Part shown: positions 12,820 through 39,320 of the stretch, piece after piece
How positions within the stretch are numbered: the stretch's first letter is position 1
How the letters are laid out: the number at the start of each line of letters is the position of its first letter
Source: Cymbomonas tetramitiformis
Lineage: Eukaryota > Chlorophyta > Pyramimonadophyceae > Pyramimonadales > Pyramimonadaceae
Reading direction: 5' to 3'
DNA length: 64,000 nucleotides
Assembly (NCBI GenBank): GCA_001247695.2
Contig: LGRX02027204.1
Span: 1-64,000 of the forward strand
Program-made: the position numbers and the translations under genes
Notes under the pieces: generated by a model
What the model was told of the DNA's origin: nothing
Database searches by the model: none
What the model saw: the letters and a program-made list of their open reading frames with translations, nothing else

Positions 12820-12934
12820 ACTACATGGGAAGCGTGTAGAGGGGGACCATCCTTATTAAATACAATTGTATTCCTTAAGTACCTTCTGTATTTTGCCAGG
12901 ATTTACCAGTATTTCGTAACGCTTCCCATGTAGT
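12820..12934. repeat. Hairpin-bounded 115-bp tip of the TIR
   Basis: ACTACATGGGAAGCG at 12820-12834 is repeated inverted as CGCTTCCCATGTAGT at 12920-12934. The mirror segment is at 39206-39320. The very end of the element can therefore fold back on itself. Confidence 0.85.
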
Positions 12935-13077
12935 GAGTATCTACGGTTATCTATGGCAGATCTGCATAAGTCGACTCCGTGATCTTCGTACAATACCGCC
13001 TGCTTACCTACCCCTGCCCGCCTGCATTGCTCGCTTCCCAGCTCGCAAGTTAGTTATCTATTAGTGATCATCGGAAC

Positions 13078-13311
13078 GTTAATTGTTTCCAATATTGAAT
13101 TATATTATATATATTACTGTTTTGGAAACATTTCGCGTAATTTATAAGTCCATACGTTAATTGTTGCCCGAATCATATATTATATAACATATTACTGTTT
13201 TGGAAACATTTCGCGTAATTTATAAGTCCATACGTTAATTGTTGCCCGAATCATATATTATATAACATATTACTGTTTTGGATACATTTACCGTGATTTA
13301 TAAGTCTATCC
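13078..13311. repeat. Three tandem 78-bp AT-rich units in the left TIR
   Basis: Units start GTTAATTGTT at 13078, 13156 and 13234. Each contains an AT-rich core (ATATTATATAACATATTA), TTTTGGAAACATTTCGCG and TTTATAAGTC. The same unit, in whole or part, occurs singly at five gene junctions inside the element. Mirror units lie at 38829-39062. Confidence 0.9.
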
Positions 13312-13338
13312 ATATTAGAATATATCTAATATATTATA

Positions 13339-13359
13339 GCAACATTCAGAGAATGTTGC
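13339..13359. repeat. 21-bp perfect palindrome (9-bp stems, 3-nt loop)
   Basis: GCAACATTC-AGA-GAATGTTGC in the TIR; mirror copy at 38781-38801. A sister palindrome with the same geometry, GAAACAAAT-GAA-ATTTGTTTC, lies at 13388-13408. Confidence 0.85.
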
Positions 13360-13501
13360 CGGTGTTCTGGCAATACAAGGAACAATTGAAACAAATGAAA
13401 TTTGTTTCCGGTCGGAGATTGTTCCCGTTACCGTTTCTCACTTTTCTTTTCTATTATCTTATGGGAATTGATTCCCCTCCCTGAAAAACCGAAGAAATTT
13501 A

Positions 13502-14497
13502 TCAAGAAAAATCAATAGGAATTAGTTCCATTAAAAATCTCAATTGTAAACCATTTGTTAATACTTTAGTGGACGTAATTTGCAATTCTAAATCATTTGG
13601 TGCAAGAACATTAATAGTGGAAACAATATCATAATCAATTCCCGTTACATTGAAACTTGAAAGTCTTACAATATAATTGGTACCTATAACATTGTTAATA
13701 TTTGTATCATTATGTTGAATTTTAAATTTTGTCAAAAGAGCATTCCCATCACTTACATTAGGGTCAGCCGGACTTAATGTAAAATTAAAATAATTAATAA
13801 ACGATGTATCAAATGTCAATATTCTCATTCCTGTTTCCCTATTTTGAATTAATCCTTTTTTACATTTGGAATAATCTATTTTGTTTTCAATTTGAACAGA
13901 ATTACATGCTATATTATTACAACCTATATCATTACAATCCATAATATCATTGCAACCTATTATGTCACCCGACATGTTAATTCTAAAATATTCAGTTGTA
14001 CTACCATCAGGTTTCTTTTCAAAATTTATGAAATATATAGTTTTAGCATTTGATATGTCAACGTCTGCGGTATTCAAATTTATGAAACTGTTACCTGTTT
14101 TTTTAATTCCAAATAAATCAATATTTGTTGTATCATTTGGTGCGGTGTTGTTTATTTCACCATTTACCCGTAAATTATTATTAACAGTGACATTTGTTGC
14201 AGATTTTGCCGAAACATTGTCGACTTGCAAATTAATACAATTCACACCCGTGAAATTACCCGCAGCAGCATCTATACCACCAGATTGAATACTAATATCG
14301 TTCCCAACAGTCAATGTGTCATTAATTTTAATAGTATCTGCTTCTAATTCATTCTTTACAATGACGTTACCATTTGTTCTTTCAATATTGTCATTTCCAA
14401 TATCTGTCCATTTAGTTGACCCACCCGATGGTGAATTGCCATTAATTGTTGTACATGTCAAGTTTTTACAAACTAAACTTTGTCCAAAACTACTCAT
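13502..14497 (-). CDS. Fibre-like virion protein 1
   Basis: 331 aa. It starts MSSFGQSLVCKN, an N-terminus shared with the next two genes (MSAFGSNL and MSSFGNEL), which suggests a common anchoring segment. The middle is Asn/Thr/Ile-rich with short periodic strands (IGCNDIMDCNDIGCNNIACN), as expected for a beta-helical or trimeric fibre; the C-terminal ~110 residues look globular and could be a receptor-binding head. No catalytic motif. TATACTATA lies at 14503-14511, five bases before the ATG. The role in host attachment is inferred from composition and position beside capsid genes. Confidence 0.6.
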   Translation of the reverse strand: MSSFGQSLVCKNLTCTTINGNSPSGGSTKWTDIGNDNIERTNGNVIVKNELEADTIKINDTLTVGNDISIQSGGIDAAAGNFTGVNCINLQVDNVSAKSATNVTVNNNLRVNGEINNTAPNDTTNIDLFGIKKTGNSFINLNTADVDISNAKTIYFINFEKKPDGSTTEYFRINMSGDIIGCNDIMDCNDIGCNNIACNSVQIENKIDYSKCKKGLIQNRETGMRILTFDTSFINYFNFTLSPADPNVSDGNALLTKFKIQHNDTNINNVIGTNYIVRLSSFNVTGIDYDIVSTINVLAPNDLELQITSTKVLTNGLQLRFLMELIPIDFS

Positions 14498-14502
14498 CTG
14501 TC

Positions 14503-14511
14503 TATACTATA
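14503..14511 (-). promoter_or_regulatory. TATAGTATA-type promoter box of fibre gene 1
   Basis: TATACTATA (reads TATAGTATA on plus), 5 bases upstream of the ATG at 14497 and 1 base from the stop of the upstream gene at 14513. Confidence 0.5.
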
Positions 14512-14512
14512 C

Positions 14513-16462
14513 TCATGTAAAATAATTGATTCCTGGGCTTACCCAAATTAATACACCACCACCAACACCAGCCACTTTTGATTCCATAACTGTTCCGATA
14601 TATGAATCGCTCGTTGTGATCTGAGCACTAGTGATTTCACCACCTACTATGCATTTCACACGTTGGCCCTTTACATACGTATTATCTGTAGCAGCGGCAT
14701 TCCTACATGTCGTGAAACCACGTCCAATCAATACGAAACAACTCTGAGTTGCAGCACTGTCTTGAATACAAACACCGATGGGAGTGCAGTTTTGATTACT
14801 TTGAGTGTATGAGTTATTGAACGGTTGAACTCCATTTACGTTGTTTATTCCATCATCATCTAACATGACAATTGTTGAAGCAGTAATCGTATTGGCGGTG
14901 TTATTCACAAATGTAAATACATCCCCGGTAAATCGTAGCGGGTTTGCTGGAAGGGTGGTATGAGCGTACGCCTTCGTAATGAGTGTCAATGGAACACCGG
15001 TTAATGTCAGTGAGTTGGTTGAACTTGGATAAGCGTAATTTAATGAATTGGATAGAATGATACCCGATGCATCGAGGTCTCCACTCAAATTTATATTAGT
15101 GGTCGTATTGGCAACCGCACACACTTGTGCTAAGCTTGGGATACCGCCACCACTGGAAACAGGGCCATAACGCACCTCGTTGGATGATGCATCATAGTGG
15201 AGCATATTAGACTCGCTTGCTGGATCGGGAGACAATCTGATAGGTCTAATATAGCAACTACCTGCGACACCGGCATTCAGTTCAACACCGCTTGCGTTTA
15301 AAACGATTGTGTTATCGGTGTTAATCGCACTCTGAGCAGAGTTCTGTCCTGCCAGAGCACCTATGTTTATGGAACTTTCACCGGCTGTAGATTCACCTGC
15401 ATATTTTCCGATATTCACTGCTGCATCTTTGCAATTGTTCTGCCCACAGTCGTCCCCAATAGACACGACATAATCACCGCAGTTATTATTACATGCACCA
15501 GAACCAATAGCAATCGTATCATTACTGGTTGTATTATTAATAGATAGTGCATTGCGACCTATAGCGATGGAACGTTCACCCATATGATCGGCATTGGTGA
15601 ATCCTTGAGTTTGCTCCCCGATGGATACTTTACCAAAACCAGCAGAACCTGATTCAATTCTAAGATTATTGCCACTGAGTTTCTCTTGATTGACAACCAT
15701 GGTACCTGTACCAGTGTATGAAACATCGGCAATCGTAGTTGTAGACCCTCTAGCGGTCACATCTTGAAGGGTAGATGTATCAGGTTGAACTGGTAAACCT
15801 GTCAATTGTGAACCGTCACCGACAAATGCAGAAGCACTAATACTATTTGTGGTCGTTGAACCTTGATCAGTGACCGATTGTAGATTCTGATTTGCACCAG
15901 AAGGTAAGTTTGTCAAAAGGCTACCATCTCCACGGTACTTGCCTGCAGTCAATGTTAGATCGCCGGTATTGAGTACAAGTGGACCGTCGTTGATCAAAAC
16001 GCCACTACCTAAAGTTTCAATATTGATGGTTGTTTGCATGCATGTAATTTCATTGATTCCTGTTTCTCCGATCGAGACTCGTGTTTGTTCCGCAGGGTCC
16101 AAGCTTTTAATTTCAAAAGAAGCATCGAGGTCATCGAGGCCTGCTGAGAATCGTGATTTCGACACTGGATTGTTCAATACGAAGTCGTTGAATTTGATGC
16201 TTGTGTGTACTTTCAGCGACCCATCTGTCAACAAGGACATCTGTTCTCGTTCATTTAATGGGTCTTGAGTATCTATGAATTTGATATCGTTTTGATAGCG
16301 TATGTCTGACCCGATATGCATGGTCTCAAGCGGCGATTCAACGCTGCCTATAGTTTGACAAACAACCGTGTCGCAAGTGAGTGTATCAGTTGGACCTGGG
16401 GTTGGCACGTATGCTTTGCCGTTAATTTCTTTAACAATTAGATTTGAACCAAAAGCTGACAT
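14513..16462 (-). CDS. Fibre-like virion protein 2 with trimeric-adhesin type repeats
   Basis: 649 aa. N-terminus MSAFGSNLIVKEINGKAYVP is like the neighbouring fibre genes. Two copies of GDGS(L/Q)LT(N/G)LP in the first third recall phage tail fibres. The centre carries YadA-head-like repeats (SIAIGRNALSI, TIAIGSGACN, VSIGDDCGQN, VNIGKYAGES, INIGALAGQN) with paired Cys. These repeat types form trimeric beta-rolls in adhesins and tail fibres. The C-terminal part has a possible head domain. The start is abutted by TATATATAATATA (16463-16475). A role as the main attachment fibre is inferred. Confidence 0.65.
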   Translation of the reverse strand: MSAFGSNLIVKEINGKAYVPTPGPTDTLTCDTVVCQTIGSVESPLETMHIGSDIRYQNDIKFIDTQDPLNEREQMSLLTDGSLKVHTSIKFNDFVLNNPVSKSRFSAGLDDLDASFEIKSLDPAEQTRVSIGETGINEITCMQTTINIETLGSGVLINDGPLVLNTGDLTLTAGKYRGDGSLLTNLPSGANQNLQSVTDQGSTTTNSISASAFVGDGSQLTGLPVQPDTSTLQDVTARGSTTTIADVSYTGTGTMVVNQEKLSGNNLRIESGSAGFGKVSIGEQTQGFTNADHMGERSIAIGRNALSINNTTSNDTIAIGSGACNNNCGDYVVSIGDDCGQNNCKDAAVNIGKYAGESTAGESSINIGALAGQNSAQSAINTDNTIVLNASGVELNAGVAGSCYIRPIRLSPDPASESNMLHYDASSNEVRYGPVSSGGGIPSLAQVCAVANTTTNINLSGDLDASGIILSNSLNYAYPSSTNSLTLTGVPLTLITKAYAHTTLPANPLRFTGDVFTFVNNTANTITASTIVMLDDDGINNVNGVQPFNNSYTQSNQNCTPIGVCIQDSAATQSCFVLIGRGFTTCRNAAATDNTYVKGQRVKCIVGGEITSAQITTSDSYIGTVMESKVAGVGGGVLIWVSPGINYFT

Positions 16463-16487: not shown

Positions 16488-16856
16488 TTACGGTGGAGGT
16501 ATTGACCCCGTCTTCATAAAAATCTGAGCAGGTGCATCACCACCTGCAGTCCGAAACCCATACAGGCCATTAACCGGAACTTCATCGTCATTTGGTGGTG
16601 TGTTAGTTGGACCGGTAACGATTGGCAACCCTGCTATTCTAAATTGGCTTAGCTTTCCCGCCATGTTGAAATCTGCAACACCGGGGTCTCCCGATTGACT
16701 CGCGTCGAAATTGAAAATAGCTTTAGTCCCTAACAAACTAATTTCAGATTGTGCTTGAGGGGTATCCTTACCGCCACGACCGATTGTCATTCCTTTACCA
16801 TCGAAAACGGTTGCCGTAACTCTTGTTGCATTTAGTTCATTACCAAAAGAGCTCAT
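16488..16856 (-). CDS. Small fibre-family protein
   Basis: 122 aa, starting MSSFGNELNATRVTATVFDG, clearly related at its N-terminus to the two larger fibre genes. Its C-terminal half (GLYGFRTAGGDAPAQIFMKTG) shows no repeats. It lies between fibre 2 and a 106-aa gene, same strand, spacing about 20-25 bases, with an ATATATATA run immediately upstream (16859-16870). Possibly a short fibre or a base protein using the same anchor. Confidence 0.55.
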   Translation of the reverse strand: MSSFGNELNATRVTATVFDGKGMTIGRGGKDTPQAQSEISLLGTKAIFNFDASQSGDPGVADFNMAGKLSQFRIAGLPIVTGPTNTPPNDDEVPVNGLYGFRTAGGDAPAQIFMKTGSIPPP

Positions 16857-16875: not shown

Positions 16876-17196
16876 TTATGAAAAAAACAAAGGTATAGGT
16901 TGCAACAATCGACTATTCAATGGATGCTCCATCGGGAAATGGAACATTTCCATGTCTTTGCTAACCTTTTCGCCATGTCCTAAGGTATAACTTTTATATC
17001 CCGCCAAAGGATTAACATTGCTTATCCTGAATGGTGGATATGTGATATCATTGATTGTTTTACACGGAAGTTGTTGCATCATTACAGGTCTATAACCTGA
17101 CATTTGAAACATCGTCGCGGTGTGAATCTGTTTGTCTACGCTCGGTCCTACGTCTTTGATCATATTGTAACTGCTTAATCCTGGTTGTTGTGCCAT
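16876..17196 (-). CDS. Uncharacterised 106-aa virion-cluster protein
   Basis: 106 aa, soluble, Met- and Pro-rich, with an NPLAGYKSYTLGHGEKVSKD segment. No domain recognised. It sits between the capsid gene and the fibre cluster, same strand, short spacers, with TATACTATT upstream of the ATG, so it is probably a co-expressed structural or assembly component. Confidence 0.5.
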   Translation of the reverse strand: MAQQPGLSSYNMIKDVGPSVDKQIHTATMFQMSGYRPVMMQQLPCKTINDITYPPFRISNVNPLAGYKSYTLGHGEKVSKDMEMFHFPMEHPLNSRLLQPIPLFFS

Positions 17197-17219: not shown

Positions 17220-18557
17220 TTAAAATACAGTTTCAATAACACGGTTTTGACCAATACGAAGCACTGCCGTAGTTTCGCAAATGATCATGGTTTCGTTTGT
17301 TGTTAGTACCACTTTTTGTAGATCGTCTACTGGTGACGCAGCCGAAGTCTGATAGTAGAAGGAACTGTTTAAACCCCGAGAATCCAATCCTGTCATACTT
17401 CTGACCCCCATTTCGGAAGGTAAATTTAAACGTACCATAGGAATAAATTGATTATTGAGCCAATCTTCGTAACTGTTAATCTTACATCCCGACAGTGTTC
17501 CATAGTTATCGGCCTTTCCGATCGTCAGGAGGTTGAACGCTGCCAACGGGTCTACCCTATAGTTGGGTACAAATAAGTTGTTGATATTGAATTGTAGAGC
17601 ACCCAGGCCACCTGCTGAAAACTGAAAGTATGATGGTAGGTAGGCTGTTCCACATGTATTTTCCAATTTAATAAGTCCTTTGTTTTTTTCTCTATAGTCA
17701 GAAGGCCTTTGCACAGCATATATGTTATTAATGCATTGAGAACTCAAAGAGAACCTTGTTGATTTGTCCATACTACCAGCTCCTTCAAAGAAACTAAAAT
17801 AATTGTAATACGGAATCTCCAAGAATCCATCACGCAATTTTGATTCCACCGCTGCGTCGTAGACCCCTGAACTAAACGTGATCGTCTCAACGGTAAAGTA
17901 AAGTTTGTCCAATTTAAAATTGCCTTTCGATACTAATTCTTCTTGAGCTTTTGTGTCAATTGCTACACCAGGTGTTTTTGTTTTTTGATAACACCCTAGG
18001 ACTTCTGGACCTGCAAGGTACAATCTGATTTGGATCGGAGGAAGTAGACTCGTATCAATGTAGGATGGTTCAGCCTCGCCTAGAAAAGATAGCCATTGAT
18101 TCAAAATGTATGGACGAGGTGTGCTGTAAAAGCCCTCGGCTACAGAGATTTCTTGATTCTTAAGAACCCTTTGATAAGTCATTTCTTTGCTAAGAGTGGT
18201 TTTGATAGTATCAAGGACACAACTGACGGTATTGTAGCCTTGAAAACCAGTGGTGAGTTGCTGGCCTCCTGCGAAGATTTCCATTCTTTGAATAAGTTTT
18301 TCTATACCGTTTGGTAGCGTCGTGATTAATTCATCAGCAAGATCTGCGTCGTTTTGAAATGCTAAAGGCGTTGTACAGGAACCTAAACAATGCATGGCTA
18401 AACTCTTCATATTTACTATAGAATTCACAGGCAGATTCAAAGTAATGGTGCTATACCTTGATGCTTCAGTGAGATTAGTCGTTTCTAATCTGAAGTAATT
18501 AGTTGAATACGAGTTCATTTTTGAAAGCCCGTAGGCCAAGCTCATCGGCAAACTCAT
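17220..18557 (-). CDS. Major capsid protein (PLV type)
   Basis: 445 aa, no signal peptide. It has the beta-rich pattern expected of PLV double-jelly-roll capsids: an N-terminal NYFRLETTN segment with alternating strands, QRMEIFAGGQQLTTGFQGYN, a long loop region, then ALQFNINNLFVPNYRVDPL. The length is slightly under the usual ~500-600. Position between penton and small virion genes, and the absence of any other large beta-rich ORF except fibres, support the call. TATATAGTATAG lies at 18563-18574, about 5 bases before the ATG. The fold assignment is by pattern recognition; a structure prediction would settle it. Confidence 0.75.
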   Translation of the reverse strand: MSLPMSLAYGLSKMNSYSTNYFRLETTNLTEASRYSTITLNLPVNSIVNMKSLAMHCLGSCTTPLAFQNDADLADELITTLPNGIEKLIQRMEIFAGGQQLTTGFQGYNTVSCVLDTIKTTLSKEMTYQRVLKNQEISVAEGFYSTPRPYILNQWLSFLGEAEPSYIDTSLLPPIQIRLYLAGPEVLGCYQKTKTPGVAIDTKAQEELVSKGNFKLDKLYFTVETITFSSGVYDAAVESKLRDGFLEIPYYNYFSFFEGAGSMDKSTRFSLSSQCINNIYAVQRPSDYREKNKGLIKLENTCGTAYLPSYFQFSAGGLGALQFNINNLFVPNYRVDPLAAFNLLTIGKADNYGTLSGCKINSYEDWLNNQFIPMVRLNLPSEMGVRSMTGLDSRGLNSSFYYQTSAASPVDDLQKVVLTTNETMIICETTAVLRIGQNRVIETVF

Positions 18558-18575: not shown

Positions 18576-19583
18576 TTATAAAATATCGGAAAGACCAACA
18601 GGTGCCAATTCTTCGACTTTGATGCTCAATGAATAGTTAATACTGCCATCGCTTGCTTGGGTCGGAGATGCTAATGTGATCAATCTCGCTTTAGAATCTG
18701 TGAGTGTTATTCTAAATGAAGTAAATTGGGACCCAGAAACTTCAATAACAAAGTTATCATTTGGATCTATATATCTTATGAAGTCTGTCGTTGTATCACT
18801 CGGCAATAGTATTTTCGCCCATATATCAGAACTAATCATTTCATTACTATTGGTAAAGGTAGAAAGATTGGTTGATTCTATATTGTGGGTAGGTAATGAT
18901 GTAATACGGAGATACAGTGCATCATTGGTTTGAATGTTACATGGATATATTGACGTGCATACTGTGTTAGCTACTAAATATTTACATTCAAATAAGTCTA
19001 TAAGTTGAGATATCTCAGCCAAACCAGCTGTGCTTCTATTGACACGACCACCCAGTACTTGATCAGAGTCGTTGTATTTTCCAGCAGTGGAAACTGAATT
19101 TAAGGCATTTTGTAAATTGCTTCCCGGTAACGCAAAAAATTCTCCACTCACGCTAAATGCTACAAACTTGACATCGGGTTGTGCAGGATCTAATACTATA
19201 CGAAATTTATTTTGGTAATCAATAACCTCATTCTGATCTTTATTGTAAGTGATAGTAACTGTTTGTATAGTACCACCGATGGCAGTTTTTATTGCGATGG
19301 CCAATTCAGATGTGAATTGATCCAACTGCGTATAATTTGCATAAGGTATTTTCACTTCCGTTAAAGTATGGTTTACTGTATCACCCACATAGAAGATACC
19401 ATTGGTCTCGTTAATACTATACCATGTCTTTGCACATGAGAAAGTATTCAAAGTCAATCTTAATTTTGTTTGTGCTCGATAATTTATCAGCTGAGTGGGT
19501 ATGTTCATTTGTAGAACTCGTGCATCTCCATTGCTATTGTCTTCGGACGACAAGAAGAGTGTTCTTGTACTAATTACGCTCAT
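18576..19583 (-). CDS. Minor capsid (penton-like) protein
   Basis: 335 aa. The N-terminus MSVISTRTLFLSSEDNSNGD fits the typical start of PLV/virophage minor capsid proteins, which form single-jelly-roll pentons. It is followed by alternating beta segments (KLRLTLNTFSCAKTWYSIN, TVTITYNKDQNE, FRIVLDP) and a C-terminal SLSIKVEEL strand. It lies directly upstream of the capsid gene on the same strand (18-base spacer) and overlaps the upstream 70-aa gene by 14 bases. TATATTAATATA precedes the ATG. Assignment rests on the opening motif, size and synteny. Confidence 0.7.
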   Translation of the reverse strand: MSVISTRTLFLSSEDNSNGDARVLQMNIPTQLINYRAQTKLRLTLNTFSCAKTWYSINETNGIFYVGDTVNHTLTEVKIPYANYTQLDQFTSELAIAIKTAIGGTIQTVTITYNKDQNEVIDYQNKFRIVLDPAQPDVKFVAFSVSGEFFALPGSNLQNALNSVSTAGKYNDSDQVLGGRVNRSTAGLAEISQLIDLFECKYLVANTVCTSIYPCNIQTNDALYLRITSLPTHNIESTNLSTFTNSNEMISSDIWAKILLPSDTTTDFIRYIDPNDNFVIEVSGSQFTSFRITLTDSKARLITLASPTQASDGSINYSLSIKVEELAPVGLSDIL

Positions 19584-19782
19584 CTATATTAATATAACAA
19601 TTATCTTTTATGGAAATAACAGTATCCCGATCTAAAGGAATTGGTTCTTCAATGTTTCCAGTACAAAGATCGTCGTAAAATTCTGGACGTTTGATATAAT
19701 CATCTACAAGCAATTCTACATGAGCTTCTTTAATATCGGGGTATTGAAGTTTCGCCAATCGTATCAATTCTTCACGATCCAT
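19570..19782 (-). CDS. Small acidic 70-aa protein
   Basis: 70 aa, starting MDREELIRLAKLQYPDIKEA. Acidic and helical at the N-terminus with no membrane segment. Its end overlaps the penton start by 14 bases, implying translational coupling or at least co-transcription. A TAATATATAGA box is next to the ATG. Function unknown; the same-strand context suggests a virion or assembly role. Confidence 0.5.
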   Translation of the reverse strand: MDREELIRLAKLQYPDIKEAHVELLVDDYIKRPEFYDDLCTGNIEEPIPLDRDTVISIKDNCYINIDERN

Positions 19783-19810: not shown

Positions 19811-19871
19811 CGTTAAATGTTTCCCAAACAGTAATATATATAATATAATTCAATATTGGCAACATTTAACG
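19811..19871. repeat. Junction repeat copy A
   Basis: CGTTAAATGTTTCCCAAACA ... GGCAACATTTAACG around an ATATATAATATAATT core. It lies upstream of the 70-aa gene and overlaps the stop codon of the lipase gene. Confidence 0.85.
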
Positions 19872-21226: not shown

Positions 21227-21844
21227 TTAAGGAGTTTTTGATTTGGGTGTTAAATCGTCTCCGGCGACATAACTTCTTAATTTTTGGAAAGGACTCGATG
21301 GTGCGGGTGGTGGTACTTGACTCCGTGTTGTTACTCTTGTGGATGCTTGTGTACCAAATATTCTCGGCGATGACAATTCTCTTACCTGCATCGTGTCTCT
21401 TAGTTCAGCCTTTAAATTACGACCAGCACCAACATTTCGTGACGTTCCAGCTACAGGAGTGCTTGGTAATAATTCTTTGGATGCATCTGCGACCATGGCG
21501 TCTCGATCTTCAGCGTCTTTTTTGAGTTTCTCTAACGTTGTGTTGTTTATTTGTTGTTGTATGTCTACCATCGGGTTCATTGTCATCGTAGGATTAGGCA
21601 TGGTTATATTAATACCACTGCTATAGTCCTGGATATCTCTCACTAATGCATTGGTATTTATCCCTGAATCTCTTAGAGTGTTGTAGAATACCGCACTGTT
21701 TTGTGAAGGCATCGTTATTACGTAGTTGCTTTTAGCAAGTTTACCATATCCTTTGAATAGATCGATACCACTCGATGCATTAGCCATGCCCATCATTTTT
21801 AAACAGTTTTGTCTCCCAACTTCATCGGTTAGAATTGTTCTCAT
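21227..21844 (-). CDS. Uncharacterised 205-aa protein
   Basis: I start it at the ATG at 21844 (MRTILTDEVGRQNCLKMMG) rather than 21916, because a TATATTA box lies just upstream and the extra 24 residues are a hydrophobic Phe/Cys-rich string overlapping a palindrome. The N-terminal ~70 residues look folded. The middle has Met/Pro-rich TMPNPTMTMNPM followed by a short coiled coil, and the C-terminus is Ser/Pro/Arg-rich with PPPAPSSPFQKL. No enzyme motif. The gap to the lipase gene is 5 bases, so the two are probably co-transcribed. Confidence 0.55.
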   Translation of the reverse strand: MRTILTDEVGRQNCLKMMGMANASSGIDLFKGYGKLAKSNYVITMPSQNSAVFYNTLRDSGINTNALVRDIQDYSSGINITMPNPTMTMNPMVDIQQQINNTTLEKLKKDAEDRDAMVADASKELLPSTPVAGTSRNVGAGRNLKAELRDTMQVRELSSPRIFGTQASTRVTTRSQVPPPAPSSPFQKLRSYVAGDDLTPKSKTP

Positions 21845-21878
21845 ATTAAAGTAATATAGAAAAAAACAGCAACAAAAG

Positions 21879-21899
21879 GAACAATCGGAGATTGTTCCC
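21879..21899. repeat. 21-bp palindrome GGAACAATC-GGA-GATTGTTCC
   Basis: Perfect 9-bp stems with a 3-nt loop, in a spacer; the next palindrome follows 10 bases later. Confidence 0.85.
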
Positions 21900-21909
21900 G
21901 GAAAGAAAA

Positions 21910-21930
21910 GCAACAATCGAAGATTGTTGC
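21910..21930. repeat. 21-bp palindrome GCAACAATC-GAA-GATTGTTGC
   Basis: Perfect 9-bp stems. The stem sequence is identical to the two copies inside the DNA polymerase gene. Confidence 0.85.
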
Positions 21931-29966: not shown

Positions 29967-30028
29967 CGTTAAATGTTTCCAATATTGAATTATATTATAC
30001 ATATTAGTGTTTTGGATACATTTAACGC
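29967..30028. repeat. Junction repeat copy D
   Basis: CGTTAAATGTTTCCAATATTG ... TTTTGGATACATTTAACG, between the SET start and the helicase stop; its last base is the final base of the helicase gene. Confidence 0.85.
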
Positions 30029-32932: not shown

Positions 32933-32997
32933 AAGCGTGAAATGTTGCCATATCACTAATATATATAATATAATTCAATTCTGGCAACATTTATCGC
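32933..32997. repeat. Junction repeat copy E
   Basis: GCGTGAAATGTTGCC ... TAATATATATAATATAATTC ... GGCAACATTTATCGC between the helicase start and the 64-aa gene stop. Confidence 0.8.
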
Positions 32998-33169
32998 TTT
33001 TTAACATCGCTCGACGACGTCGTTGATATTCCCTCATTTTTTCTCGATGTAATTCTTTGTGATTTTCGTACCAAGTTTTTTGATGTTTTCGGTTTAAAGC
33101 CCTCGTTTCTTCAATGTGAGCCTCTCTATACTTCCTTTGAGCTTTAAGTTGTGCCTCGGTCAGAGCCAT
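32975..33169 (-). CDS. Small Lys/Arg/Glu helical protein, 64 aa
   Basis: 64 aa: MALTEAQLKAQRKYREAHIE followed by RKHQKTWYENHKELHREKMR and REYQRRRR. The Y-x3-(H/N)-x2-E periodicity resembles basic helical repeats found next to HNH endonucleases in algal viruses, but no HNH motif is present. Likely a DNA-binding helix protein. ATATATATACTTA lies upstream of the ATG. Overlaps junction repeat E at its 3' end. Confidence 0.5.
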   Translation of the reverse strand: MALTEAQLKAQRKYREAHIEETRALNRKHQKTWYENHKELHREKMREYQRRRRAMLKSDKCCQN

Positions 33170-33539: not shown

Positions 33540-34988
33540 ATGGACGAATCTCCTCCCCTTGTCGTTACTTCTCGCAAGCCTAACAGTGCAGGTGCTATCT
33601 GGGACCCGCTGTGTCAGTTACCGACGTTTGCGACGCGGTCTAAAAAAGCCAGAGTCGGATCTGCTCGCTGTGTTTCGTTAAAGTTCGAGAACAATATGTA
33701 TGTACGTTGCGACAATAAGTGTGCGTACGGTGGAGTTTTTTGTTTCGTGGATTCGCACCGTCTCGATACCTGCGAGAAAGTATTAGCGATAGAAGGAGCT
33801 CCAGTGCTTTTTGTCAAGCAGTGTGACAGGCTGCAGGATTCGGAAGAACCAGTTGTTTATGCTTCTATTGTAGATACCTTACACAGCAAAGTAGTAGCTC
33901 CGTGTTTTGCCGCTATTAAGGCCGCGGATCAAGAAGAAGCGTTCGAAAACTGTGCTGACGATAGCGAATTTTTAGCTTTGCGTGAAACGTGCAGTTCTTT
34001 TTTAGACAGTAGAGAGTTAACCAGTTCTTCTTTCTTTTCTAAACAAACAGAAAATACAGCACAGTTATCTCTTACTATGGCCAGACTGACAGTTGATTCG
34101 CCAGTGTCTTCTGTAAAGATTCGCCAGCCAGGCAGTAAACGCATCGCGAAAACACCGCCACCAGCCAGTTCCAGTTCGGTTCCGATAGTTTCAGTGCCAG
34201 AAACACCAGTTTCACAGTCTCCTTCAGTTTCAGTTCAGTGCAGTCCTCGCAGAGTTGAAAACACTGACCGGATCTTTGAGCTGGAAGCCCGGATCGCGGA
34301 ACTGACGGCTGAAAACGCTGAGCTGAAAAGTAACGTTATTGATACTGAAGCTGAACTTGAGAGTGCTGAAAGTGACGTTCTTAAAAAACAGGAAAATATT
34401 GACCAACTTACCGAATCGAACCTCAGAAGTTGTGAACAGATAAACGAACTGAACGCTGAAGTGACTGCTTTGAAAAAAGCACCGGCCACCAAGATCCGGG
34501 TTTTGAAGTCCCCTGACAGAACACCGAATGTTCAAGACCAGCGGATCAAGGAACTTGAAACTGAAGTAAAAACTTTGCAGGAAAAATATGACGACAGTCA
34601 GGACGCTTTGGTAAACAGTGAGCATATATATGTGGAAGAAATAAACAGCCAGAGAAAACAGTTAAACGAGTTAGAGGACCAGATCCGAGTCTTGAAAAAA
34701 CAGTTAGCAGCAGTAACAACTGAACAGACCCCTCAAGAAAAAACTATAGCTATGGGTAACAAGAGAAAAGAACAGTTGGCAGCAGAAGAAAAGAAACTAA
34801 AAAAAGCAGTAGCAGCAGCAGAGAAGGTTAAAAAGAAAGCAGATCCGGAACCACAGTTGACAGAAGAAGAGAAAACAGCAAGGCTCTCTGACTATCACTT
34901 TAGAGAGTCCCCAGAGGAAAAGCCTGATAACTGGGTGTTTACAACTGACGCTGGTATCCACTTCGAAAAAAAGAAAACATTCGGGTGA
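33540..34988 (+). CDS. Coiled-coil protein, 482 aa (cargo block)
   Basis: Residues ~1-170 are globular with several Cys (RCDNKCAYGGVFCFVDSHR), residues ~180-230 are Ser/Pro-rich with TPPPASSSS, and residues ~240-420 are a long coiled coil (ELEARIAELTAENAELKSN, then similar heptads). A Lys/Ala-rich helix and a conserved-looking tail (DNWVFTTDAGIHFEKK) follow. The frame ends ...TFG-TGA, where GGGTGAGT forms a strong donor-like site, so the stop may lie in an intron. Codon use and GC content differ from viral core genes, and no TATAGTATA box is seen. Function unknown; scaffold-like. Confidence 0.55.
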   Translation: MDESPPLVVTSRKPNSAGAIWDPLCQLPTFATRSKKARVGSARCVSLKFENNMYVRCDNKCAYGGVFCFVDSHRLDTCEKVLAIEGAPVLFVKQCDRLQDSEEPVVYASIVDTLHSKVVAPCFAAIKAADQEEAFENCADDSEFLALRETCSSFLDSRELTSSSFFSKQTENTAQLSLTMARLTVDSPVSSVKIRQPGSKRIAKTPPPASSSSVPIVSVPETPVSQSPSVSVQCSPRRVENTDRIFELEARIAELTAENAELKSNVIDTEAELESAESDVLKKQENIDQLTESNLRSCEQINELNAEVTALKKAPATKIRVLKSPDRTPNVQDQRIKELETEVKTLQEKYDDSQDALVNSEHIYVEEINSQRKQLNELEDQIRVLKKQLAAVTTEQTPQEKTIAMGNKRKEQLAAEEKKLKKAVAAAEKVKKKADPEPQLTEEEKTARLSDYHFRESPEEKPDNWVFTTDAGIHFEKKKTFG

Positions 34989-35072
34989 GTAACGGTGGTT
35001 TGGTTTGTTGTTTGTTTGCAGGTTTAAAACACTTCGTAACTCACTTCAAGTTATCCTTTTTTTCAGGTAAAT

Positions 35073-35348
35073 ATGCCTGTTACTACTCGGTCTATGACTG
35101 CAGCAGCCGATACTGTACCTCAGCACGAATCCAAAACTTTGGTGTTTAAATATAGTTATAGATATGACTTGGGATACCACATACCGGATCTTTATAGGGG
35201 CAGCATAGAACGAGTAACAGGGAGACCCCCACCGACTGCAGAGGAATATAGGCTGAGAGACGAAGTGGACCACTGGAGAACTTGTTTTCTTAGAGCTGCG
35301 TCCGAACTGTATGACAAAGAGCAGGAGCTCAAAAAGTATCAGAGTTAG
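35073..35348 (+). CDS. Cargo module 2, 91 aa
   Basis: Starts six bases after an acceptor-like site (TTTTTTTCAG at 35057-35066). Begins MPVTTRSMTAAADT, similar to the opening VTRSVAKKQKR of module 7. The rest (YSYRYDLGYHIPDLY ... ELYDKEQELKKYQS) has a short C-terminal coiled coil. No recognised domain. May be an independent gene or a first exon. Confidence 0.45.
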   Translation: MPVTTRSMTAAADTVPQHESKTLVFKYSYRYDLGYHIPDLYRGSIERVTGRPPPTAEEYRLRDEVDHWRTCFLRAASELYDKEQELKKYQS

Positions 35349-35423
35349 AGTAAACAATAATAGTATGTATTCTTTTTATAGAAATAATAGTATTGTTGTA
35401 TTATGTTGTTGTTTTGTGCAGAT

Positions 35424-35993
35424 ATGGCTCCCAAACAATCTACTCTTGCTGGTGCTGGTGCAAGTGGCACTGCTGCAGCTGCCGAAGGCCTGGTCAGTCC
35501 CCGTGCCACCGATGGGGGGAAGCTTCTTTATGCTGTCCGTGGTGGTCCCCATCAAGGTGTATATGACCGTTGGTTCATGGCTATTGATGCTGGCTTTAAG
35601 TACAAACAGGGAGTCGGTAATGGTGCATCTTTTTCCAAATCTGAAAGGGATATTGCTGAGAAATGGGCTTCGGACCTTTCCAAGATGCAACCTGAGGCCA
35701 AGGCTGCCCAGTTGCAGAAGATCATCAAGGATCAGCATATCCTTATTAGGTTGCTGGTTGTTGTAATCATCTTCACGGTGGTTTTCTTCATTGTCCATTT
35801 CTTTGTGGAGTGCATTGGCCATTGGTATGGCTGTTCTGAGAAAATCATGAAGACCCACCCTGTGTGCCTTGGAAATATGAAGGTGGACTTGTTCATGTCT
35901 GAAAATGCTGCATTACTGCAGACCCTTGTTTTCACCGAGATGCTTGCCGTTATGGCAGCATTCTTTGTTTGGCTTGTAGGTTGCATTGCTTAG
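35424..35993 (+). CDS. Two-helix membrane protein with viroplasmin/RNase H1-N-like segment
   Basis: 189 aa from the ATG at 35424, two bases after an acceptor-like TTTTGTGCAG. Residues ~33-80 (LLYAVRGGPHQGVYDRWFMA ... GASFSKSERDIAEKWA) match the pattern of the caulimovirus viroplasmin / RNase H1 N-terminal fold (YAVR.G...G.Y..W..A). A membrane helix at ~107-127 (LLVVVIIFTVVFFIVHFF) and a second at the C-terminus (TEMLAVMAAFFVWLVGCIA) flank a Cys-containing loop. A membrane-tethered nucleic-acid-binding domain is unusual. Function unknown. Confidence 0.5.
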   Translation: MAPKQSTLAGAGASGTAAAAEGLVSPRATDGGKLLYAVRGGPHQGVYDRWFMAIDAGFKYKQGVGNGASFSKSERDIAEKWASDLSKMQPEAKAAQLQKIIKDQHILIRLLVVVIIFTVVFFIVHFFVECIGHWYGCSEKIMKTHPVCLGNMKVDLFMSENAALLQTLVFTEMLAVMAAFFVWLVGCIA

Positions 35994-36042
35994 ACAATAC
36001 AATGTACTTATTATTTTTGGTAATTATGTTGTATAATACCAG

Positions 36043-36210
36043 GACAAAGGCAAACGGCCTGCAGAATCTGAACCTGATCCTGTCGAACAAGATTTTGATG
36101 AGGTACCATTAATAGAATTACTTCTCGGTTTACTGATCATGTTACTTATCCATTTAGTTTTATGGTTTATATATGCTCATGGTTATTGGTGGATCTTTGA
36201 GTTACCTTAA
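36043..36210 (+). CDS. Cargo module 4: KGKRP mini-exon with alternative membrane tail
   Basis: Opens in phase 0 after ATACCAG. The first 60 nt encode DKGKRPAESEPDPVEQDFDE and end at a GAG/GTACCA donor-like site. Without splicing the frame continues into a hydrophobic tail (PLIELLLGLLIMLLIHLVLW) and stops after 55 codons. Spliced, it would join module 5 in phase. No ATG, so an upstream exon is required. Confidence 0.4.
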   Translation, partial: DKGKRPAESEPDPVEQDFDEVPLIELLLGLLIMLLIHLVLWFIYAHGYWWIFELP

Positions 36211-36272
36211 AAGGAGTTGTCCATTAAAACATACTGATTAATTATTGTATTCTTTGTAATTATTTGTTTCAG

Positions 36273-36392
36273 GGTAAAGGCAAGAGGCCAATGTCTGAAC
36301 TTGAAAGTCAACCTGAGGAGCCTGCTGCTAAGGTAATAACATATCTATTCTTTGCTGTCTGTTTATTGTATAAACGTATCTTATATACATAG
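36273..36392 (+). CDS. Cargo module 5: second KGKRP mini-exon
   Basis: Opens in phase 0 after TTTGTTTCAG. 60 nt encode GKGKRPMSELESQPEEPAAK, a paralogue of module 4 of equal length, ending AAG/GTAATA. Read through, it gives another hydrophobic tail (VITYLFFAVCLLYKRILYT) and a stop. Spliced, it joins module 6 in phase 0. Confidence 0.4.
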   Translation, partial: GKGKRPMSELESQPEEPAAKVITYLFFAVCLLYKRILYT

Positions 36393-36413
36393 GGTGTGTT
36401 TGTTTGTTTTCAG

Positions 36414-36821
36414 GGATGTATTTATTGTAAAAAAACAACTGCAATCATGTACAGTTGTCCCGAGAATTATTGCAGCAATGTTAGATGTGAAGATTGTATT
36501 GAAGATGATTATGTAGATGAATTTCGACATGGTGATGGGGAACATTGTTGTCAAAGATGCATAGAGGAGTATTGTGAAGACTGTAATGGTTATCACATTA
36601 AACCTTTGTGTGATTTAGGTCCTTTATCATGCTCTATTTTGTTCCCATGGGCTACCAGAAAGAGACTTTATTCTGAAGCCTATTGGAAAGAATTAGAGCT
36701 GTTAGGTAGAGGTATTAACGTTAGGTATCAGGACAACAATGACTTTCAGGACAATAATGACTCTGATTCAGACTATGATCCTATGTGTAATGTGTGTGAT
36801 GAATATTATTGGACTGATTAA
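36414..36821 (+). CDS. Cargo module 6: Cys-rich zinc-binding protein/exon
   Basis: 135 codons in phase 0 after TTGTTTTCAG. The first ~70 residues have paired Cys (CIYCKKTTAIMYSCPENYCS, RCEDCIEDD, CCQRCIEEYCEDCNGYH) typical of a treble-clef or RING/PHD-like zinc module. A more ordinary segment and an acidic tail with CNVCDEYYWTD follow. Preceded in phase by modules 4 and 5. Confidence 0.5.
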   Translation, partial: GCIYCKKTTAIMYSCPENYCSNVRCEDCIEDDYVDEFRHGDGEHCCQRCIEEYCEDCNGYHIKPLCDLGPLSCSILFPWATRKRLYSEAYWKELELLGRGINVRYQDNNDFQDNNDSDSDYDPMCNVCDEYYWTD

Positions 36822-36828
36822 TGTACAG

Positions 36829-37233
36829 GTGACTCGTTCTGTTGCCAAGAAGCAGAAGAGGCTTCAAGAGAAGGCCGACACAGAGTCTGATAATGATGAT
36901 TCCGACGATGATTCCGATAACAACGATGCCTTTGACAAGTTATTTGAATCGGTAAAATCTCAAAGCCCCATCAATAAGGATGAGTATGATGAACACGTCA
37001 TTGACATTATGATGCATACCGCCCGGTATAGGATTTGGAAACACATTATCCCAAAGGGTATTCAAAACAAAACTTCATTAGTTCCTGATGTAGTTTTCCA
37101 AGACTTTCGGGAAGATCCTGCTATCAAAGAGCTTTTGAAGACTCATTTGAAGAATCTTAGAAATGAGATGAATGCATATCTTCGGAAAGTTTTTAGGGGT
37201 GGAATCGATCCCAAAACCCTTCGTGAATGGTAA
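36829..37233 (+). CDS. Cargo module 7: acidic/helical 134-codon exon
   Basis: Opens in phase 0 after ATGTACAG, seven bases after the previous stop. Starts VTRSVAKKQKRLQEKADTES, then a Ser/Asp acidic run (DNDDSDDDSDNNDAFDKLF), then a helical C-terminal domain (DIMMHTARYRIWKHIIPKG ... YLRKVFRGGIDPKTLREW). No ATG before residue ~60. The stop TGGTAA overlaps a donor-like GGTAAAT. Confidence 0.45.
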   Translation: MTRSVAKKQKRLQEKADTESDNDDSDDDSDNNDAFDKLFESVKSQSPINKDEYDEHVIDIMMHTARYRIWKHIIPKGIQNKTSLVPDVVFQDFREDPAIKELLKTHLKNLRNEMNAYLRKVFRGGIDPKTLREW

Positions 37234-37262
37234 ATTTGTTTTGAATTATTCATTTGTTACAG

Positions 37263-37469
37263 GATGATGATGAAGATTCTCCATTTCTTTGTCGGAGTTG
37301 TAAAGTATTTATGTTTGACCAGTTAGCATACGGGTGCTGGATTTGTGAAGACGAACCATACTGTCCACAATGTGCCGATGCCATGTTTTGTAATAAGTGT
37401 GGAGTCTTCTTGTGCAAAGATTGTCAGGAAAAGGAAAATGGTGTTGTTTTGTGTAAAGAATGTAAGTGA
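37263..37469 (+). CDS. Cargo module 8: Cys-rich zinc module
   Basis: 68 codons in phase 0 after TTTGTTACAG. DDDEDSPFLCRSCKVFMFDQ, then CWICEDEPYCPQCADAMFCN, KCGVFLCKDC and LCKECK: six C-x2-C pairs or near-pairs, a RING/B-box-like double zinc site. The stop AAGTGA overlaps GTAAGT, a consensus donor. Confidence 0.5.
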   Translation, partial: DDDEDSPFLCRSCKVFMFDQLAYGCWICEDEPYCPQCADAMFCNKCGVFLCKDCQEKENGVVLCKECK

Positions 37470-37564
37470 GGTAGAATCTTTTATTGATTAGTTAGACATA
37501 CCTACATATATACCTACATATACATAGTTAGACTAAATATTTTTGTTTTGGTTTGTATTTGCAG

Positions 37565-37717
37565 GAGTGTTATCGGTGTTATACTGAATTTGGTAATCTG
37601 AGAATGTGTCGTCAGTGTAAACAATTAATTTGTACGGAGTGTGTCGGCCGATACAATGCCGATACAACACCAACATGTATTTCCTGTTTTGAAAAAATCT
37701 GGAATGCCACCTGGTAA
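37565..37717 (+). CDS. Cargo module 9: Cys-rich zinc module
   Basis: 50 codons in phase 0 after TTTGTATTTGCAG. ECYRCYTEFGNLRMCRQCKQ, LICTECVGRYN, TCISCFEKIWNATW. Four C-x2-C pairs. The stop TGGTAA has the same form as in module 7. Confidence 0.5.
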   Translation, partial: ECYRCYTEFGNLRMCRQCKQLICTECVGRYNADTTPTCISCFEKIWNATW

Positions 37718-37798
37718 TTACAATAAGTTCTCACATAGAGTAAATAGTTGTTAAGTAATATTTAGTAATATTGAGTGATTTCAGGTTTGTGTTTGCAG

Positions 37799-37999
37799 GA
37801 TTCAGAATGGGAAGAATGTGAGGGTGAATTTGGCTGTCACCGGTGTTTTGCTGCTTGGAAGGAAAGATGTGTTTATTGTACTAAGAGTGTGTGTCGGAAG
37901 CATCGATTCTATTTAGAAAATATAGATGTATCTCCGCGTCATCAAGAGCCTAAATGTATTACCTGTCTTGAAGTGTATTGCAGTCATAAACATAAATAA
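37799..37999 (+). CDS. Cargo module 10: Cys-rich zinc module
   Basis: 66 codons in phase 0 after GTGTTTGCAG. EECEGEFGCHRCFAAWKERC, VYCTKSVCRKHRFYLEN, KCITCLEVYCSHKHK. Its end overlaps the convergent methyltransferase 3' end by 16 bases. Confidence 0.5.
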   Translation, partial: DSEWEECEGEFGCHRCFAAWKERCVYCTKSVCRKHRFYLENIDVSPRHQEPKCITCLEVYCSHKHK

Positions 38000-38679
38000 T
38001 ATTTTTGATCAATTTCAATTCCAATAAAGTTTCGATTATTATCTTTGCATACCTTGCCAGTTGTTCCGATGCCCATAAATGGGTCAAGTACATTATCATT
38101 CTCATTTGAATAAGTTTTAACAATCCATTCTAATATATCATAAGGTTTGGCAGTTGGGTGTTTACTTTTGTAATTACCATTAGCAATACTTATTACAGAT
38201 TTCGGAAACCGTTTCCCATTAGATATAGTATCGATTCTTGGACTGTTACCAGTATACAATTCAGTACGTCGACCAGGCTGTCTTGTGTAAGGAATTCCGT
38301 CAATCATTTGTGGATTATATATTGGTAACTTATCATAGAATATATATAACATTTCGTGCGATCGAAGTGGTTGGTGATTACAATGATAGAATCCCGAACT
38401 CATTGATTTCTGCCATACAATATCATATTTGAACATTCTTTCATTACTAGATATTAATTTATGTCCGAACCGAGTTGTACAAAAAAATACATATGCAGTT
38501 CGAGGTTTACCGATACGTTTCAGTTCTTTCCATAATCGATCTAAATCAATAATTTGATTGTCAAATTTACATGCAGTTTGATTGTATGGTAAATCTAAAA
38601 TAACTAAGTCAATAGAATTAGAATCGATGTTCGGTAATATATCAAAACAATCTGAGTTGTATATGTTTTGGGTTCCCAT
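37984..38679 (-). CDS. Beta-class adenine DNA methyltransferase
   Basis: 231 aa from the ATG at 38679 (MGTQNIYNSDCFDILPNIDS). Motif IV is DLPYNQTA (29-36, DLPY in place of DPPY). The target-recognition region (~80-150) is followed by a motif-X-like KHPTAKPYDILEW and motif I, DPFMGIGTTGK (199-209), with FIGIEIDQKYY. The order IV-X-I marks the beta class; DxPY with an FxGxG-type site indicates N6-adenine (or N4-cytosine) methylation of DNA. Translation could be extended upstream through the TIR to 38862, but that extension is duplicated TIR sequence, so I prefer 38679. Possible role: protecting or marking viral DNA. Confidence 0.88.
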   Translation of the reverse strand: MGTQNIYNSDCFDILPNIDSNSIDLVILDLPYNQTACKFDNQIIDLDRLWKELKRIGKPRTAYVFFCTTRFGHKLISSNERMFKYDIVWQKSMSSGFYHCNHQPLRSHEMLYIFYDKLPIYNPQMIDGIPYTRQPGRRTELYTGNSPRIDTISNGKRFPKSVISIANGNYKSKHPTAKPYDILEWIVKTYSNENDNVLDPFMGIGTTGKVCKDNNRNFIGIEIDQKYYLCL

Positions 38680-39320
38680 AAGATAATAGAAAAGAAAAGT
38701 GAGAAACGGTAACGGGAACAATCTCCGACCGGAAACAAATTTCATTTGTTTCAATTGTTCCTTGTATTGCCAGAACACCGGCAACATTCTCTGAATGTTG
38801 CTATAATATATTAGATATATTCTAATATGGGTAGACTTATAAATCACGGTAAATGTATCCAAAACAGTAATATGTTATATAATATATGATTCGGGCAACA
38901 ATTAACGTATGGACTTATAAATTACGCGAAATGTTTCCAAAACAGTAATATGTTATATAATATATGATTCGGGCAACAATTAACGTATGGACTTATAAAT
39001 TACGCGAAATGTTTCCAAAACAGTAATATATATAATATAATTCAATATTGGAAACAATTAACGTTCCGATGATCACTAATAGATAACTAACTTGCGAGCT
39101 GGGAAGCGAGCAATGCAGGCGGGCAGGGGTAGGTAAGCAGGCGGTATTGTACGAAGATCACGGAGTCGACTTATGCAGATCTGCCATAGATAACCGTAGA
39201 TACTCACTACATGGGAAGCGTTACGAAATACTGGTAAATCCTGGCAAAATACAGAAGGTACTTAAGGAATACAATTGTATTTAATAAGGATGGTCCCCCT
39301 CTACACGCTTCCCATGTAGT
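38673..39320. repeat. Right terminal inverted repeat of the PLV
   Basis: Inverted copy of 12820-13467, ending CCCATGTAGT. The start codon of the adjacent methyltransferase gene (38679) lies just inside it. Confidence 0.95.

What the first reader, a model, noticed from the sequence alone, without database searches (positions are those of the whole stretch)
12820..39320. Near-intact polinton-like virus inserted exactly within a tandem-repeat unit
TIRs of equal length (648 bp) with one mismatch noticed, a perfect 6-bp target duplication (aactgc), and removal of the element regenerates a standard 145-bp array unit. All morphogenesis and replication genes look intact, so this may be a recent and possibly still active provirus.
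Basis: partly seen in the sequence, partly recalled or inferred. Interest (0 to 1): 0.8.

Follow-up and report, generated by a model that had tools for sequence, protein, structure and literature searches.

The report
Integrated polinton-like virus in Cymbomonas alga
This is a well-preserved small DNA virus sitting in the genome of a marine green alga that is already known to carry many such viruses; the new details are its exact insertion site and unusual short palindromes in its DNA, even inside its polymerase gene.

Summary
Observation confirmed. The element is window 12820-39320 (26,501 bp), with 648-bp inverted repeats (647/648 identical) and the 6-bp duplication AACTGC; taking it out restores 145-bp array spacing. 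The host is Cymbomonas tetramitiformis or a close relative. That alga is published with 1,616 polinton-like capsid gene copies, so this is a new member of a known kind.

The capsid protein models as a double jelly roll. Integrase, polymerase, primase-helicase and ATPase motifs are present; core genes show purifying selection. The penton is unverified; no protease was found in 21 of 23 ORFs scanned.

'Recent' needs qualifying: a second contig, 0.47% divergent in the flank, carries the same left junction. The array belongs to a dispersed repeat (39 other contigs among 40 scored). None of 17 other element ends lies in the array.

Possibly new: imperfect 61-bp palindromes upstream of five genes, with related copies in each terminal repeat; other elements keep self-pairing at one such site with changed sequence. 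Three 21-33-nt palindromes lie in frame in the polymerase gene and are absent from the one relative compared. Activity is untested; most such elements are reported silent.

The parts
12814..12819 (.). left copy of 6-bp target-site duplication AACTGC
   Evidence: also in C18162
39321..39326 (.). right copy of target-site duplication AACTGC
12820..13467 (+). left TIR, 648 bp
38673..39320 (-). right TIR, 648 bp
12820..12934 (.). terminal stem: 16-bp arms 12820-12835 / 12919-12934; mirrored at the right end
13076..13309 (+). three 78-bp repeats (77-100% alike) holding the AT-rich palindrome; mirrored at 38834-39067
13502..14497 (-). fibre-like protein, N-terminus MSSFGQSL
   Evidence: role inferred
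14513..16462 (-). fibre-like protein, 649 aa, N-terminus MSAFGSNL; weak Chlorovi_GP_rpt match below cut-off
   Evidence: role inferred
16488..16856 (-). short protein (p3), N-terminus MSSFGNEL
16876..17196 (-). 106-aa protein (p4), unknown
17220..18557 (-). major capsid protein, double jelly roll, 445 aa
18576..19583 (-). putative minor capsid (penton) protein, by position only
   Evidence: structure model failed
19570..19782 (-). 70-aa ORF (p6)
19811..19871 (.). 61-bp imperfect palindrome, lipase/p6 gap
19866..21221 (-). class 3 lipase-like protein, GHSNG motif
21227..21844 (-). 205-aa ORF (p8), unknown
21878..21930 (.). two 21-bp hairpins
22126..23439 (-). retroviral-type integrase, D83/D154/E190, 35 residues between the last two
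23470..23530 (.). 61-bp imperfect palindrome, PolB/integrase gap
23538..27476 (-). family B DNA polymerase, 1312 aa; exonuclease and palm motifs present; OTU-type Cys and His candidates; TP domain inferred only
23647..23667 (.). 21-nt in-frame palindromic stretch in PolB, absent from C17790
24784..24810 (.). 27-nt in-frame imperfect palindromic stretch in PolB, absent from C17790
25192..25224 (.). 33-nt in-frame palindromic stretch in PolB, absent from C17790
27495..27944 (-). 149-aa ORF (p11)
27975..28035 (.). 61-bp imperfect palindrome between divergent p11 and p12
28100..28573 (+). 157-aa ORF (p12)
28577..29500 (+). packaging-type ATPase (Walker A GTGKS, Walker B FFDD); A32-like by inference
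29479..29952 (-). SET-domain-like protein (Pfam match just below cut-off)
29967..30027 (.). 61-bp imperfect palindrome, helicase/SET gap
30028..32886 (-). primase-like N-terminus (inferred) plus SF2 helicase related to herpes origin-binding protein
32936..32996 (.). 61-bp imperfect palindrome, p64/helicase gap
32975..33169 (-). 64-aa ORF (p64)
33540..37233 (+). cargo region: coiled-coil ORF (cc) and small ORFs p91, p196, p124, p164; splice-site-like sequences
37984..38679 (-). N6/N4 DNA methyltransferase (start chosen by inspection)
11982..12819 (+). host 145-bp array, left part
39321..39675 (+). host 145-bp array, right part

Best explanation
It is an integrated genome of a polinton-like virus in Cymbomonas tetramitiformis, probably of the published Gezel-like PLVA/PLVB clades. 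Shown: the integration signature, the gene set, core motifs in open frames, purifying selection between copies, and a left junction shared by two contigs. Inferred: the integrase joined linear viral DNA to a 6-bp staggered cut in a host repeat; protein-primed polymerase plus primase-helicase copies it from the terminal repeats; capsid protein and ATPase package it; the lipase helps entry; transcription is switched on by a co-infecting giant virus, as for the cultured relatives Gezel-14T and Moe. The intergenic palindromes are transcription signals, either upstream promoters or hairpin 3'-end signals of mimivirus type.
Against: No expression, particle or read evidence here; most such elements in this alga are reported silent. 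The penton is unverified. No protease was found in 21 of 23 ORFs. The PLVA/PLVB assignment was not tested against reference MCPs, and the DUF2190 marker gave no Pfam hit. IMG/VR scans with the MCP, an MCP alignment and the ATPase gave no confirmed relative, nor did the phage collection. TIR identity may be kept by conversion or replication, so it is not a clean clock.
Confidence: 0.85

Rival explanations
1. A self-synthesising transposon that moves only within the genome and makes no virions.
For: Many related capsid genes in one genome (1,758 candidates, 95 scored). Integrase present.
Against: MCP under strong constraint, dN/dS 0.05-0.08 against 9 copies; fibre-like, ATPase and lipase genes kept. 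Among the 95 MCPs scored none but its own is above 96% identical, so no recent burst of this element is seen. An MCP 89% identical lies on a 3.4-kb JGI contig of unstated origin.
Confidence: 0.12
2. A retained antiviral element: the alga keeps it because it is expressed when a giant virus infects and limits that virus.
For: Proposed for PLVs in general (PMC12220804 abstract); Moe suppresses its mesomimivirus helper (PMC12945077 passages).
Against: Nothing examined in this locus shows host regulation; constraint between copies is explained equally by virus replication; most elements silent; [quoted passage not shown]
Confidence: 0.2
3. An assembly chimera placed an episomal virus genome into the array.
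For: Hybrid assembly of a repeat-rich, probably tetraploid genome; right junction on one contig only; C18162 ends 1,407 bp inside the element.
Against: Exact 6-bp duplication and exact 145-bp restoration; left junction on two contigs with diverged flanks; the same terminal sequence with a different 6-bp duplication at C17790.
Confidence: 0.04
4. The element is old and intact by chance or by repeated conversion among copies.
For: Left junction shared by contigs 0.47% apart; cargo and methyltransferase genes have dS 0.006-0.022 against C17790 while the other genes have 0.077-1.08, so exchange between elements occurs. Had insertion preceded the haplotype split, about 3 TIR mismatches were expected; one or none has P about 0.19, so this is not excluded.
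Against: One TIR mismatch in 648; no internal stop in the ORFs listed.
Confidence: 0.25

Closest known systems
PLVA/PLVB Gezel-like PLVs of Cymbomonas tetramitiformis (PMC10675990; abstract and sections 5-6 read)
   Same: Same host, size range (19.5-29.5 kb), pPolB and DDE-type integrase among the reported gene sets, many MCP copies, TIRs.
   Different: This locus was not matched to a named example; palindromes and in-frame PolB stretches are not mentioned in the sections read.
Gezel-14T / PgVV and CpV-PLV Moe (passages of PMC12945077; rest recalled)
   Same: Polinton-like viruses; helper-dependent lifestyle proposed here by analogy.
   Different: Those were isolated as viruses of haptophytes (a passage says Gezel-14T has also been observed in a provirophage state); this one is seen only integrated, in a green alga.
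Polintons (class Polintoviricetes; passages of PMC11071308)
   Same: PolB of the Pfam organellar/viral type, rve integrase, 6-bp TSD.
   Different: No Ulp1-type protease found; carries an added primase-SF2 helicase and a lipase.
Prim-S2H cryptophyte PLVs, cluster C2 (PMC12220804, Results parts 1-3 of 5)
   Same: Primase fused to SF2 helicase; rve integrase and TSDs common in that cluster.
   Different: Here the fusion sits beside a PolB gene; whether those elements also carry PolB was not seen. The paper gives 20 R. lacustris cases and one MELD virus.
Rickettsia palindromic elements (recalled; search listing only)
   Same: Short palindromes inserted in frame in protein genes.
   Different: Much shorter here (21-33 nt), in a virus polymerase gene.
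Mimivirus/virophage hairpin 3'-end signals and medusavirus palindromic early promoter (passages of PMC4402537, PMC11814242, PMC8557863)
   Same: Palindrome kept while sequence varies (hairpin rule, also reported for virophages); palindrome close upstream of start codons and absent from convergent gaps (medusavirus).
   Different: Function not tested here; each model fits only part of the data.

Membership tests
Polinton-like virus | double jelly-roll MCP | tested here: met
Polinton-like virus | packaging ATPase | tested here: met
   Walker motifs GTGKS and FFDD; Pfam matches weak; family by inference
Polinton-like virus | minor capsid (penton) | tested here: inconclusive
   position only; model pLDDT 34
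Polinton-like virus | TIRs | tested here: met
Cymbomonas PLVA/PLVB (Gezel-like) | MCP in the PLVA/PLVB clade | tested here: inconclusive
   95 MCPs at 93% or more in the same genome, own one included; no reference MCPs for a tree
Cymbomonas PLVA/PLVB (Gezel-like) | pgvv05 gene | not tested
   no reference sequence used
Cymbomonas PLVA/PLVB (Gezel-like) | long ORF with DUF2190 affinity | tested here: inconclusive
   no Pfam DUF2190 match at E 0.1 in the ORFs; the paper's method may be more sensitive
Cymbomonas PLVA/PLVB (Gezel-like) | pPolB or TVpol with Yrec or DDE integrase, 19.5-29.5 kb | tested here: met
   26,501 bp
Polinton (Polintoviricetes) | PolB and rve integrase | tested here: met
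Polinton (Polintoviricetes) | TP domain on PolB | not tested
   inferred from the length upstream of the OTU-type Cys only
Polinton (Polintoviricetes) | Ulp1-type capsid protease | tested here: not met
   no Pfam protease match in 21 of 23 ORFs, at Pfam sensitivity; p6 (70 aa) and p91 (91 aa) not scanned
Virophage | virophage-type MCP | tested here: inconclusive
Mimivirus-type hairpin 3' signal | hairpins at 3' ends, sequence not conserved | tested here: inconclusive
   lipase/p6 site fits; divergent p11/p12 site does not; convergent p164/MT gap lacks the 61-bp family

The most novel reading that the evidence does not exclude
These viruses carry a family of mobile palindromes, typically 21 bp (9-bp arms, 3-nt loop), that spread through terminal repeats, intergenic gaps and, in frame, the coding sequence of their own replicative polymerase. 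Beside them, longer intergenic palindromes act as a transcription code in which the fold and not the sequence is kept, which would tie the virus to a giant-virus helper with mimivirus-type transcript processing.
Probability: 0.3. Interest if true: 0.65.

Novelty: new member of a known kind. Interest (0 to 1): 0.42.

Why it matters
An insertion that can be dated, with open core genes, helps ask whether the many integrated viruses of this alga come from outside infection or from copying inside the genome. If the palindromes are confirmed, they offer a sequence-level clue to which giant virus serves as helper, and a case of in-frame mobile palindromes in a viral polymerase.

Tried and rejected
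Free relatives: MCP alone, MCP alignment and ATPase against IMG/VR gave no confirmed relative (19 and 1 pattern hits in the last two failed confirmation); the phage collection gave none. The protein database gave 25 MCP homologues, 25-89% identical, without context. PDB sequence search with the MCP gave nothing; PolB gave four weak matches to unrelated proteins, E 0.14-0.98. Rfam and tRNA scans of the window were empty. PHROGs gave strong matches only to the methyltransferase among 10 proteins. The penton model failed.

Preference for the 145-bp array: not supported at this sample. None of the 17 other loci L017-L033 (16 contigs; L017 and L018 are the two ends of C17790; L032 has only 5 bp outside the element) had an array match. 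Rows L014-L016 are this locus and C18162 and were set aside. Only 40 of 1,191 TIR candidates had been scored.

A UL9-like origin reading of the TIR repeats was considered because the element encodes an origin-binding-type helicase. It was put aside because the same box stands upstream of genes; it is not excluded.

The mismatch-free 1,590 bp across the junction on C18162 first looked like a sign of misassembly (0 mismatches in the 1,407 bp of element where 6.6 were expected, P 0.0014); the left flank itself has a 1,745-bp clean run, so it is not exceptional.

Results that weaken the palindrome reading. A first hairpin count with 11-bp arms found 1 in the element against 1-5 in five shuffles: no excess. 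The count with 9-bp arms and 3-5-nt loops was chosen after the PolB stretches were seen; it gave 8 against a Markov mean of 0.6 (maximum 2 of 20), and as the TIRs repeat each other these are 6 independent places. The right host flank had 6 in 24.3 kb by that count (Markov mean 0.3); those are TA repeats and sequences of other kinds. The GNAACAATC type was seen in 6 of the 17 TIR loci L017-L033 and in none of the 12 capsid loci L045-L056, 9 of which have a different 21-bp palindrome. RNA-fold z-scores of three of the five long-palindrome gaps (-1.5, -2.1, -2.1) do not reach the lowest tenth of 40 coding controls (-2.2); two do (-3.8, -7.0), the lowest control being -4.5. The core-motif count was 7 against a mean of 1.1 and a maximum of 5 in 100 Markov sequences; two of the 7 are the two arms of one palindrome and one, at 37681 in the convergent gap, is a weak stray.

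Left open because the genome search did not complete: PolB stretches in other copies, genome-wide palindrome count, right-flank alleles, giant-virus genes.

Literature: 'palindromic' + 'in-frame' + 'polinton' found 0 papers. The listings (20 of 49; 5 of 5; 15 of 4,668; 12 of 25) showed no title on such palindromes in PLVs. Listings and passages only, so this is no proof of absence. (polinton with Herpes_ori_bp or origin binding protein) found 0 papers.
Full report
Check of the observation. The two TIRs are 648 bp each, 12820-13467 and 38673-39320, with one mismatch and no gaps. The target duplication AACTGC stands at 12814-12819 and 39321-39326. With the element left out and one duplication kept, the array spacings read 145,145,144,145,145,145,145.

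Host. A Ty3-type retroelement ORF in the right flank is 96% identical to two proteins named from Cymbomonas tetramitiformis, over 79% and 67% of the query. The window is part of contig C18163 (89,183 bp) of an 851.7-Mb assembly of 25,745 contigs. The published hybrid assembly of this alga is 914.3 Mb in 35,945 scaffolds. It reports 178 PLVA, 1,340 PLVB and 98 PLV2 capsid gene copies, putatively complete PLVA/PLVB genomes of 19.5-29.5 kb with pPolB or TVpol and Yrec or DDE integrase, and transcripts from only 66 loci (PMC10675990, sections 5 and 6 read). This element therefore fits a described population; I could not place it in a named clade because no reference capsid sequences were at hand.

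Population and age. The TIR search scored 40 of 1,191 candidates: this locus, its partner contig C18162, then C17790 at 84%; most of the rest share only the outer 230-250 bp, at 89-96%. The MCP search scored 95 of 1,758 candidates; all 95, own one included, are at least 93% identical, and 89 of 95 have no stop. An open capsid frame is thus ordinary among the best-scoring copies. C17790 is colinear; matched genes are 60-100% identical, p3 was not matched, the capsid gene is interrupted after residue 206 and the first fibre gene matches in two pieces; it has its own 6-bp duplication GCCAAC. dN/dS against C17790 is 0.05-0.25 for 12 of 13 genes; the exception, the coiled-coil cargo ORF (0.84), has only about 8 changes. 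The MCP against nine copies gives 0.05-0.08. The lineages therefore diverged while their proteins were in use. dS is 0.31-1.08 for ten genes but 0.077 for the lipase, 0.022 for the methyltransferase and 0.006 for the cargo ORF, so elements exchange pieces.

C18162 matches window 1-14226 at 99.4% and runs through the same left junction 1,407 bp into the element before it ends. The flank differs at 56 of 11,946 sites (0.47%), the array at 14 of 864, and the element part at 0 of 1,407. If the insertion is older than the split of the two haplotypes, about 3 TIR mismatches would be expected; one was seen (P of one or none 0.19). So the insertion is young compared with its divergence from the other elements scored, but may be as old as the haplotypes. 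C18164 matches the right flank from 43150 on at 93-97% and does not reach the junction in the 10 kb fetched, so the right allele remains unknown.

Target. The 145-bp unit had 293 matches (lower bound). The 772 bp just right of the array are present at 99-100% in 39 other contigs, 40 of 9,334 candidates having been scored. In three of four array-bearing loci examined, sequence left of the array also matches the window, at 98.6-99.2% (L005, L007, L008; not L006). The array is thus part of a dispersed repeat and not a stand-alone satellite. In C11666 array and 772-bp segment are about 5.4 kb apart, whereas here they adjoin. None of the 17 other loci with an element end has an array match, so the site looks like chance.

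Terminal stem. The outermost 16 bp recur inverted 99 bp further in, giving a predicted stem (DNA fold -19.7 kcal/mol, z -5.0). Of loci L017-L033, 16 of 17 keep both arms within two mismatches. This may serve replication or integrase binding; not tested.

Long palindromes. A 61-bp imperfect palindrome (arms 73-76% complementary where measured) occurs at five gaps: lipase/p6, PolB/integrase, p11/p12, helicase/SET, p64/helicase, the copies being 70-100% alike; related copies stand three times in each TIR. By coordinates it ends 14-49 nt before a start codon in all five, and in the four tandem gaps it also touches or nearly touches the stop of the preceding gene. One gap is divergent. The one convergent gap with space (p164/MT) has no member of the family, only a weak 20-nt stray. 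Of 12 capsid loci plus C17790, p6 was found in 12 of 13: three, one being this window, have this palindrome, and nine have other sequences. Six different ones folded as RNA gave z of -2.9, -10.3, -3.8, -2.2, -9.6 and -3.1, with 0, 0, 1, 8, 0 and 1 of 200 shuffles as good; L052 was not folded. Kept fold with changed sequence is what the mimivirus 3'-end hairpin rule predicts (PMC4402537 passages; said to hold for virophages too, PMC11814242 passages). Place near starts, presence at a divergent gap and absence at the convergent one is what the medusavirus early promoter shows (PMC8557863 passages: 40-70 bp upstream, 0 of 88 convergent). I cannot decide between them. Repair of one arm from the other could also keep palindromes without selection.

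Short palindromes. Against C17790 the PolB gene here has three in-frame extra stretches of 33, 27 and 21 nt, each a palindrome built on GCAACAAT, the 27-nt one imperfect. In the parts that aligned, all five extra stretches of 20 nt or more are palindromic by eye (three in PolB, two in the right TIR); four shorter ones (6-18 nt) are not. C17790 in turn has such a palindrome upstream of SET that the window lacks. Perfect 21-bp hairpins number 8 in the element, 6 if the TIRs are counted once, all of the form G(C/G/A)AACAnnn-nnn-complement with matching changes in both arms. The counts against this reading are in Tried and rejected. With one relative the direction of change is not proven; the same sequence at several places favours insertion. 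Strand-displacement replication would expose single strands in which such hairpins form (inference).

How it probably works. Shown: integration signature, core motifs in open frames, constraint, population. Inferred: protein-primed replication from the TIRs aided by the primase-helicase; packaging by the ATPase into a double jelly-roll capsid; entry with fibre-like proteins and lipase; expression triggered by a giant virus. For a relative this is known: Moe grows with the mesomimivirus BQ3 and not with the phycodnavirus BQ1 (PMC12945077 passages). No activity of this copy was tested.

Verdict. A real integrated polinton-like virus with open core genes and an exact insertion site, of a kind already reported in this alga. 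The palindromes are the part that may be new.

Noticed in passing
window 23647-23667, 24784-24810, 25192-25224: Three in-frame palindromic stretches in PolB absent from the one relative compared.
   Followed up: partly
L044 (C17790:51718-53029): Relative's capsid gene is interrupted after residue 206 by about 1.3 kb; nature of the insert not examined.
   Followed up: no
window 34980-35075 and 36380-36420: Splice-site-like GTGAGT...TTTGCAG and TTTTCAG sequences in the cargo region; suggests intron-bearing captured genes.
   Followed up: no
window 35403-35993: 196-aa ORF with a weak RNase H1 N-terminal-like match (E 0.034) followed by hydrophobic stretches.
   Followed up: no
window 10879-12819 and 39675-40452: Parts of a dispersed high-copy host repeat to which the array belongs; in another contig the two parts are about 5.4 kb apart.
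   Followed up: partly
window 60274-63999: Retroelement ORF carrying Dam-type and C5-type DNA methylase matches beside integrase and chromodomain.
   Followed up: partly
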